The translations under genes and the position numbers were made by a program. DNA of 64,000 nt from Synaphobranchus kaupii. Taxonomy: Eukaryota; Chordata; Actinopteri; Anguilliformes; Synaphobranchidae. Shown one piece after another: positions 1,629-33,655 of the stretch. The notes under the pieces were generated by a model that saw nothing but the letters and a program-made list of their open reading frames with translations, was not told the origin of the DNA and did not search any database. Position 1 is the first letter of the stretch; each line of letters opens with the position of its first letter. The DNA is taken from NCBI GenBank assembly GCA_029718625.1, contig CM056380.1:15976459-16040458 (forward strand), read 5' to 3'.

Positions 1629-1727
1629 TTGAGGACTGTGACCGGGAACGAGTTCCTCCTGCAGTCGGAGACGGACTCGGTGATAAAGGAGTGGTATGGC
1701 ACCATCCAGAGTGTCATCCACCGGCTG
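1629..1727 (+). CDS. arhgap9: arhgap9 exon: C-terminal end of PH domain
   Basis: The exon follows the acceptor gtgtttag and ends at donor ctg|gtgagg. It is 99 bases, phase 0 at both ends. The peptide LRTVTGNEFLLQS...IKEWYGTIQSVIHRL is the last beta strand and C-terminal helix of a PH domain, with the invariant Trp in EWY. This is the first coding exon visible; earlier PH, WW and SH3 exons must be upstream of the window. Confidence 0.85.

Positions 1728-33655: not shown

What the first reader, a model, noticed from the sequence alone, without database searches (positions are those of the whole stretch)
1629..33655. A third ZEB ohnologue next to arhgap9
The sequence shows an ARHGAP9-type gene (+) converging on a ZEB-family gene (-) about 6.6 kb from its stop codon. 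From established gene maps, ZEB1 and ARHGAP12 are convergent neighbours on human 10p11, and ZEB2 and ARHGAP15 are convergent (with GTDC1 between) on 2q22. ARHGAP9 (12q13) and ARHGAP27 (17q21) have no ZEB neighbour in human. The simplest reading is that an ancestral ZEB-ARHGAP pair was copied in the vertebrate whole-genome duplications, and that a third ZEB survives in this fish beside arhgap9. Divergence from ZEB1/2 outside the fingers suggests an old split rather than a recent teleost duplicate.
Basis: partly seen in the sequence, partly recalled or inferred. Interest (0 to 1): 0.9.

Follow-up and report, generated by a model that had tools for sequence, protein, structure and literature searches.

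The report
Third ZEB gene of ray-finned fishes
Beside the gene arhgap9, this deep-sea eel carries a third gene of the ZEB family of gene repressors, a family described as having only two members in vertebrates; it sits in the same three-gene neighbourhood as ZEB1 and ZEB2 and has lost their homeobox-like domain.

Summary
The window is contig C5 of Synaphobranchus kaupii. An arhgap9 gene (+) converges on a ZEB-type gene (-), 6.6 kb apart. The same genome holds four other ZEB loci (two zeb1, two zeb2), so this is a fifth; I call it zeb3. The 120 listed relatives (sturgeon, gar, bowfin, teleosts) are named zeb1, zeb2, zag-1 or hypothetical. Those put in a tree form one clade that follows the species tree. 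A teleost-duplicate origin is rejected (lnL 747 worse, p 0.0003). The best evidence is the neighbourhood: a KIF5-type, an ARHGAP9/12/15-type and a ZEB gene lie together on three contigs of this genome (with zeb1 on C2, zeb2 on C8, zeb3 on C5), each ZEB convergent with its ARHGAP.

All 120 keep a CtBP motif and 117 or more the paired E-box fingers. None has the homeodomain-like domain or a recognisable SMAD-binding segment.

Limits: the protein tree alone cannot place the long zeb3 branch against ZEB2; no invertebrate outgroup was at hand; presence in sharks, coelacanth or tetrapods was not resolved. Eight searches of an open-licence library showed no paper on a third ZEB. Function is inferred.

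The parts
1629..8891 (+). arhgap9, 3' half: exons 1629-1727, 1922-2036, 2562-2681, 3764-3940, 5902-6036, 6685-6790, 8699-8891 (end of PH domain, linker, RhoGAP domain, stop); further exons lie left of the window
   Evidence: P0121; PH domain of P0121 matches human ARHGAP9 with 143.9 bits and ARHGAP27 with 88.8; trees and clade tests
4139..4192 (+). 54-base exon of the RhoGAP domain (ERAVTTDGRYLFPEELVQ), of the type found in human ARHGAP9 (recalled sequence)
   Evidence: present in 4 of the 11 fish proteins aligned
15478..33655 (-). zeb3 (third ZEB gene), coding exons 2 to 8: 33655-33413, 29793-29587, 26285-26077, 24308-24197, 23781-22412, 19095-18912, 16020-15478; exon 1 is 9.6 kb right of the window
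   Evidence: exon 1
24201..26250 (-). N-terminal finger cluster, fingers 1-3 (26250-26188, 26157-26095, 24263-24201); finger 1 ends in H-x3-C here
   Evidence: fingers 1-2 are 23 of 51 residues identical to gar ZEB2, fingers 3-4 51 of 55
23696..23764 (-). N-terminal finger 4 at the start of the long exon
23357..23395 (-). conserved zeb3 stretch [13 protein letters not shown]; it falls opposite the ZEB2 SMAD-binding segment in one alignment but not in another
23189..23254 (-). middle finger, present in ZEB2 and most zeb3, not intact in ZEB1
22742..22768 (-). CtBP-binding motif EPLDLSLPK; between it and the middle finger, where ZEB1 and ZEB2 have the homeodomain-like domain, there is none
15860..18978 (-). 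C-terminal finger cluster (18978-18916, 16003-15941, 15919-15860)
   Evidence: cluster with linker 85 of 94 residues identical to gar ZEB2
15478..15864 (-). acidic tail, open in another frame than the fingers
   Evidence: of eight relatives printed two lack the last finger; the other six read on in frame, five of them (Anguilla, Aldrovandia, Megalops, Conger, Sardina) with a similar acidic stretch

Best explanation
The ZEB-type gene is a third ZEB ohnologue, zeb3. Shown: it is a separate gene from the two zeb1 and two zeb2 loci of the same genome, it is older than the split of sturgeons from gar, bowfin and teleosts, and it sits in a KIF5-ARHGAP-ZEB neighbourhood that is repeated around a zeb1 and a zeb2. 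Inferred: the neighbourhood was multiplied in the early vertebrate genome duplications, this copy kept KIF5A, ARHGAP9 and a ZEB in ray-finned fishes, and the ZEB was lost beside ARHGAP9 on the human line. How it most likely works (inferred from parts, about 0.6): like ZEB1 and ZEB2 it binds paired CACCT/E-box sites through two little-changed finger clusters and represses by bringing in NuRD (N-terminal RRKQxNP motif) and CtBP (PLDLS motif). It lacks the homeodomain-like domain and a recognisable SMAD-binding segment, so it is probably an E-box repressor not tied to BMP/TGF-beta signals in the way ZEB2 is. The confidence below is for the ohnologue reading.
For: Own genome: five ZEB loci, four with the homeodomain-like domain and one (the window) without. 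KIF5-type, ARHGAP9/12/15-type and ZEB exons together on C2 (KIF5 88.275-88.295 Mb +, RhoGAP 88.396-88.401 +, zeb1 exons at 88.445 and 88.452 -), on C8 (RhoGAP 14.668-14.938 +, zeb2 15.051-15.058 -, KIF5 15.447-15.461 +) and on C5 (KIF5A 15.786-15.830 -, arhgap9 +, zeb3 -). Tree of 43 proteins: zeb3 100/100, in the order sturgeon, gar+bowfin, teleosts. With the eel's own zeb1 and zeb2 exons: zeb3 100/100, ZEB1 100/100. Teleost-only and neopterygian-only origins rejected. CtBP motif in 120 of 120, finger-3 and finger-4 strings in 119 of 120, C-terminal finger-2 and -3 strings in 117 of 120. Homeodomain model: 0 of 121 rows (120 proteins and the window model) at E<1e-3 against 120 of 120 ZEB1/2, which include the 25 rows it was built from. 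SMAD-segment model: 0 of 120 over 10 bits against 20 of 20 ZEB2, the rows it was built from. N-terminal RRKQ in 75 of 120 and in this eel. Roles of these parts in ZEB proteins: PMC8304685, passages.
Against: Placing the whole zeb3 clade on the teleost, ray-finned or bony ZEB2 stem costs under 1 lnL unit (p 0.45-0.47), and ZEB2 is one side of a branch with only 73/75 or 68/93. The zeb3 branch is long, and the tree tool warns of long-branch joins and uneven letter make-up. No non-vertebrate ZEB and no shark, coelacanth or tetrapod zeb3 was seen, but each protein list was cut at 120. ARHGAP15 as the partner's kin is borderline, not rejected (p 0.051). Only one zeb1 and one zeb2 of the eel have a RhoGAP gene near: the C19 zeb1 is 6.9 Mb from a RhoGAP-KIF5 pair and the C2 zeb2 at 130 Mb has none listed near. 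The KIF5 and RhoGAP genes beside zeb1 and zeb2 were located by exon matches, not assigned to 5B/5C or 12/15. Conger and Periophthalmus list different contig lengths for the two genes. No GLI in the 200 kb to the left, 20 kb of which read N. Human map positions are recalled. No expression or binding data.
Confidence: 0.9

Rival explanations
1. A teleost (3R) or eel-specific duplicate of zeb2 or zeb1 that diverged fast.
For: Public databases name it zeb1-like or zeb2-like, and it shares the middle finger with ZEB2.
Against: Gar, bowfin and sturgeon have it. Teleost zeb3 plus teleost ZEB2 as a clade is rejected, lnL 746.55 lower, p 0.0003. The eel has two zeb1 and two zeb2 besides.
Confidence: 0.01
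2. A segmental copy of the ZEB2 neighbourhood made in an early ray-finned ancestor, later than the vertebrate genome duplications.
For: The tree cannot place zeb3 outside ray-finned or bony ZEB2, and zeb3 was seen only in ray-finned fishes (lists cut at 120).
Against: The neighbours are KIF5A and ARHGAP9, which also exist in human (recalled), and the eel has separate KIF5-type and RhoGAP genes beside zeb2 on C8. A late ZEB2 copy alone would have had to land, in convergent order, beside ARHGAP9.
Confidence: 0.07
3. A ZEB pseudogene or gene under decay in this eel.
For: The acidic tail is in another frame than the fingers, and the annotated protein stops after the long exon.
Against: The splice sites seen and the finger codons are intact, and C-terminal and N-terminal (3-4) finger clusters are 88 of 94 and 53 of 55 residues identical to sturgeon zeb3. 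The frame change lies behind the last finger and may be an assembly slip.
Confidence: 0.03

Closest known systems
ZEB2 (SIP1, ZFHX1B)
   Same: Finger clusters 51/55 and 85/94 identical to gar ZEB2, middle finger, CtBP motif, N-terminal NuRD-type motif, convergent ARHGAP-type neighbour and a KIF5-type gene on the eel's C8
   Different: No homeodomain-like domain, no recognisable SMAD-binding segment, fingers 1-2 strongly changed, much faster evolution, partners are ARHGAP9 and KIF5A
ZEB1 (deltaEF1, TCF8)
   Same: Finger clusters, CtBP and NuRD-type motifs, convergent ARHGAP-type neighbour and a KIF5-type gene on the eel's C2
   Different: ZEB1 has the homeodomain-like domain and lacks the intact middle finger (0 of 43 listed ZEB1 proteins)
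Proteins named zeb1-, zeb2- or zag-1-like in fish databases
   Same: Many of these are this gene: 120 of 120 proteins listed score best with gar or sturgeon zeb3
   Different: The names hide that they are one group separate from true zeb1 and zeb2

Membership tests
ZEB family of transcription factors | Two clusters of C2H2-type fingers with the paired E-box-binding fingers | tested here: met
   finger-3 and -4 strings in 119 of 120 and C-terminal finger-2 and -3 strings in 117 of 120. DNA binding itself not tested
ZEB family of transcription factors | Homeodomain-like domain between the clusters | tested here: not met
   0 of 121 rows at E<1e-3 (8 at E<=10, best 0.9 bits) against 120 of 120 ZEB1/2
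ZEB family of transcription factors | CtBP-interacting PLDLS motif | tested here: met
   120 of 120 with P-[LIV]-DLS; the four-fold repeat reported for ZEB proteins was not counted
ZEB family of transcription factors | N-terminal NuRD-interacting motif | tested here: met
   MAEAIRGKRRKQANPRRNQ in this eel; RRKQ in the first 60 residues of 75 of 120 proteins; some of the others have other annotated starts, e.g. the bowfin and sturgeon entries
ZEB family of transcription factors | Common descent with ZEB1 and ZEB2 | tested here: met
   trees; repeated gene neighbourhood
ZEB2 (orthologue) | Falls inside the ZEB2 clade | tested here: inconclusive
   best trees put zeb3 outside ZEB2 (73/75, 68/93) but attachment to ZEB2 stems is not rejected
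ZEB2 (orthologue) | SMAD-binding segment | tested here: not met
   0 of 120 over 10 bits (2 at up to 1.7 bits) against 20 of 20 ZEB2 and 5 of 5 ZEB1, best ZEB1 11.8 bits. ZEB1 is reported not to bind SMADs directly, so a weak match is no proof of binding
ZEB1/ZEB2 regulation by miR-200 | Several miR-200 sites in the 3' untranslated region | tested here: inconclusive
   0 CAGTATT and 1 CAGTGTT in the 3 kb behind the stop, expected 0.33 and 0.47; the true end of the transcript is unknown
ARHGAP9 (partner gene) | Groups with ARHGAP9 among 9, 12, 15 and 27; SH3-WW-PH-RhoGAP layout | tested here: met
   human references recalled, the PH part of ARHGAP9 checked against PDB 2p0d; kinship with ARHGAP15 borderline (p 0.051)
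Ohnologue of the 2R duplications | Paralogous neighbourhood shared with ZEB1 and ZEB2 | tested here: met
   KIF5-ARHGAP-ZEB on C2, C8 and C5 of one genome
Ohnologue of the 2R duplications | Origin before the split of sharks from bony vertebrates | tested here: inconclusive
   no shark or lamprey orthologue seen in the capped lists

The most novel reading that the evidence does not exclude
Jawed vertebrates began with at least three ZEB genes. zeb3 survives in ray-finned fishes as a stripped-down ZEB repressor: same DNA sites, NuRD and CtBP kept, homeodomain-like domain and SMAD input gone, and possibly outside the miR-200 feedback loop. Fish neural-crest and epithelial-mesenchymal programmes would then contain a ZEB that is uncoupled from TGF-beta/BMP input and that tetrapods lost.
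Probability: 0.5. Interest if true: 0.78.

Novelty: new variant of a known kind. Interest (0 to 1): 0.66.

Why it matters
A 2021 review states that ZEB1 and ZEB2 are the only two vertebrate members of the family (PMC8304685, passage); the abstracts of PMC3235469 and PMC5681250, seen in the listing, also speak of a two-member family. A third member in ray-finned fishes changes the baseline for fish work on epithelial-mesenchymal transition and neural crest, where it could mask the loss of the known zeb genes. It also offers a natural test of what the homeodomain-like domain and the SMAD-binding segment do, because both are missing from a protein that kept the DNA-binding clusters. And it would sort out scattered database names (zeb1-like, zeb2-like, zag-1, arhgap15) that hide one gene pair.

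Tried and rejected
Rejected: teleost duplicate of zeb2; pseudogene (exons and splice sites seen are intact); arhgap12 or arhgap27 as partner. The idea that the homeodomain sits in an unread exon was tested with a profile on six frames of about 15,470-33,700: best 2.8 bits.

Led nowhere: the tree of finger columns alone does not separate ZEB2 from ZEB1. Clade tests for the attachment of the whole zeb3 clade have no power. miR-200 sites: chance level. GLI fingers: no hit in the 200 kb left of the window. A RhoGAP tree with a distant chimaerin outgroup left the fish rows and ARHGAP9 unresolved, with 15 beside 12 and 27 at 96/92. Of three motif models the third failed to build and its printed lines repeat the second, so only the SMAD-segment model is used. 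Literature: eight searches listed no paper that I could recognise as describing a third vertebrate ZEB. The four papers with the word zeb3 were seen as listings only. Passages of PMC10525774 and PMC7014683 say nothing on the number of ZEB genes; a figure of the former that lists duplicated genes is not held. The library holds open-licence papers only.

My model used the splice acceptor before FQ in the exon at 19.1 kb; Anguilla and gar proteins show that the one six bases further (exon start 19095) fits better. These two residues were in the window row of the trees.

Full report
What is there. The window lies on contig C5 (116,263,768 bases) of a 1.50-Gb genome, positions 15,976,459-16,040,458. 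The proteins identify the species as the cutthroat eel Synaphobranchus kaupii. On the + strand the 3' half of a RhoGAP gene runs from 1629 to its stop at 8889-8891. On the - strand a ZEB-type gene runs from exon 2 at 33655 to its last exon at 16020-15478. The two genes converge, 6.6 kb apart. The missing first exon of the ZEB gene was found 9.6 kb to the right of the window, at C5:16,050,077-16,050,020, with a good donor site and the sequence MAEAIRGKRRKQANPRRNQ. The public protein of this gene (P0001) stops after the long exon and starts differently.

The ZEB gene is a fifth ZEB of this genome. A search of the genome with the start of the long exon gave the window and four other ZEB loci (an eighth fetched locus, on C3, is another zinc-finger gene by its finger sequence). 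Translated, two are ZEB1-type (C2 at 88.45 Mb, C19 at 1.01 Mb) and two ZEB2-type (C2 at 130.38 Mb, C8 at 15.06 Mb). All four have the homeodomain-like domain. So what looks like the usual teleost set 1a, 1b, 2a, 2b is there, and the window's gene is extra.

It is an old, shared gene. The first protein search listed the best 120 of 1802 matches, all ray-finned fish where a species is named. In a BLAST comparison all 120 score best with gar or sturgeon zeb3 rather than ZEB1 or ZEB2 references; these two references are themselves in the set. Databases call them zeb2, zeb2-like, zeb1, zeb1-like, zag-1 or hypothetical. A tree of 43 rows gives zeb3 as one side of a branch with 100/100; inside it sturgeon comes first, then gar with bowfin, then teleosts, as in the species tree. 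The rows were chosen by hand to span the groups: the window model and 17 of 120 zeb3 proteins, 20 of 77 ZEB2 (four of them cartilaginous fishes) and 5 of 43 ZEB1 (numbers by class). Adding the eel's own four genes (47 rows, from finger 4 onwards) gives zeb3 100/100, ZEB1 100/100 and ZEB2 68/93. Tests of alternatives: teleost zeb3 with teleost ZEB2 as one clade is 746.55 lnL units worse, p 0.0003; neopterygian zeb3 with neopterygian ZEB2 is 379.14 worse, p 1e-90. So the gene predates the sturgeon split.

What the tree cannot say. Placing the entire zeb3 clade on the stem of teleost, ray-finned or bony ZEB2 costs 0.59-0.74 lnL units (p 0.45-0.47). The zeb3 stem is long and the ZEB2 branches are short, so the attachment point is not resolved. 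No invertebrate or lamprey ZEB was at hand.

The neighbourhood answers it better. The two exceptions are Conger and Periophthalmus. In both the zeb3 entry carries a submitter's locus name and the RhoGAP entry a curated-style name, which suggests different assemblies, but I did not check; Larimichthys, one of the 27, has a second RhoGAP entry on a contig of another length. In three species the locus tags are neighbours or one step apart (SKAU 154600/154620, AAFF 391300/391310, AGOR 67360/67370). Left of the window I found KIF5A on the - strand between 15,829,928 and 15,786,312 (summed tblastn bits of recalled human KIF5A 1136, KIF5C 919, KIF5B 852, with a KIF5A-type C-terminal end) and some of the upstream arhgap9 exons; 20 of the 200 kb read N. 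A genome search with the RhoGAP domain and one with a KIF5 motor then showed the same triplet elsewhere. C2: KIF5 88.275-88.295 (+), RhoGAP 88.396-88.401 (+), zeb1 exons at 88.445 and 88.452 (-). C8: RhoGAP 14.668-14.938 (+), zeb2 15.051-15.058 (-), KIF5 15.447-15.461 (+). C5: KIF5A (-), arhgap9 (+), zeb3 (-). In each, the ARHGAP and the ZEB converge. The KIF5-type exons outside C5 are mostly 70-90% identical to the human KIF5B motor, some down to 59%; I did not assign them to 5B or 5C, nor the RhoGAP loci to 12 or 15. Against this: the second zeb1, on C19, is 6.9 Mb from a RhoGAP-KIF5 pair at 7.91-8.01 Mb on the same contig, and the second zeb2, on C2 at 130 Mb, has no listed RhoGAP near. Two further RhoGAP loci of the family (C12 at 22.54 Mb, C4 at 65.7 Mb) have no ZEB near. 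I recall that in human KIF5A-ARHGAP9 lie at 12q13, KIF5B-ARHGAP12-ZEB1 at 10p11 and KIF5C-ARHGAP15-ZEB2 at 2q22-23, and ARHGAP27 at 17q21. 2q, 12q and 17q, with 7p/q, are the published Hox paralogon (PMC2211742, passage); 10p is not in it.

The partner gene is ARHGAP9. The domain column shows WW, PH and RhoGAP domains in P0121 and an SH3 domain in several relatives. Its PH domain matches the human ARHGAP9 structure with 143.9 bits and the ARHGAP27 one with 88.8; no PH domain of 12 or 15 is among the matches. Identities with recalled human 9, 12, 15, 27 are: SH3 36/62, 26/58, none, 24/59; WW 24/36, 19/35, none, 12/35; PH 68/114, 60/112, 59/112, 52/114; RhoGAP 121/214, 118/195, 118/196, 109/196, which does not discriminate. 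The tree groups the fish rows with ARHGAP9 (95/93; PH plus RhoGAP alone 96/90); grouping with ARHGAP15 is borderline (p 0.051 and 0.053). Eleven of 120 listed fish proteins were used. Database names are split between 9, 12 and 15.

Anatomy and likely mechanism. The DNA-binding core is little changed: fingers 3-4 53/55 and the C-terminal cluster 88/94 identical to sturgeon zeb3, 51/55 and 85/94 to gar ZEB2. Fingers 1-2 have drifted to 23/51 against gar ZEB2, where gar ZEB2 and ZEB1 still share 44/51. A CtBP motif P-x-DLS is in 120 of 120 and RRKQ in the first 60 residues of 75 of 120. The middle finger passes a strict pattern in 92 of 120; the 28 that fail include carp relatives (Labeo, Cyprinus, Carassius, Ctenopharyngodon) and killifishes, and a single substitution is enough to fail. 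A profile of the homeodomain-like domain finds 0 of 121 zeb3 rows and 120 of 120 ZEB1/2, the latter including its 25 building rows. A profile of the ZEB2 SMAD-binding region finds 0 of 120 zeb3, 20 of 20 ZEB2 (its building rows) and, weakly, 5 of 5 ZEB1 (best 11.8 bits). In ZEB proteins the N-terminal motif binds NuRD, the PLDLS sites bind CtBP, the SMAD segment with (QXVX)2 binds activated SMADs, and the homeodomain-like domain no longer binds DNA (PMC8304685, passages). From this I infer an E-box repressor that keeps co-repressors and lacks SMAD input. The gene evolves fast: by the branch lengths the gar-to-sturgeon path is about 1.3 changes per column in zeb3 and about 0.14 in ZEB2. No excess of miR-200 sites was seen in 3 or 6 kb behind the stop.

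Novelty. Eight searches of the open-licence library listed no paper that I could recognise as describing a third vertebrate ZEB. A 2021 review says that ZEB1 and ZEB2 are the only two. The sequences themselves are public under other names. It is a member of the ZEB family by descent and DNA-binding core, but it lacks the domain that gives the family the word homeobox in its name; hence a new variant of a known kind.

Noticed in passing
window 15478-15864 (-): The acidic tail of zeb3 is open in a different frame from the fingers in this assembly, whereas in Anguilla, Aldrovandia, Megalops, Conger and Sardina it follows the fingers in frame; either a real change or an assembly slip.
   Followed up: partly
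window 4139-4192 (+): A 54-base exon of arhgap9 (ERAVTTDGRYLFPEELVQ) is present in 4 of 11 aligned fish proteins (this eel, Albula, Anguilla, Megalops) and absent from the other 7; it may be alternatively spliced or lost in some lines.
   Followed up: partly
window 32793-32912 (+) and 50593-50667 (+): Remnants of what look like Tc1-type transposase reading frames (label recalled) in zeb3 introns.
   Followed up: no
window 7975-8474: A 500-base run of N in the last intron of arhgap9.
   Followed up: no
window about 26400-27050, 44600-45350, 55350-56050: Repetitive stretches that give long spurious open frames in the introns of zeb3.
   Followed up: no
G000:C19 at 1.01 Mb and 7.91-8.01 Mb: The second zeb1 copy of this eel is 6.9 Mb from a RhoGAP-KIF5 pair on the same contig, as if a rearrangement had split the triplet.
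   Followed up: partly
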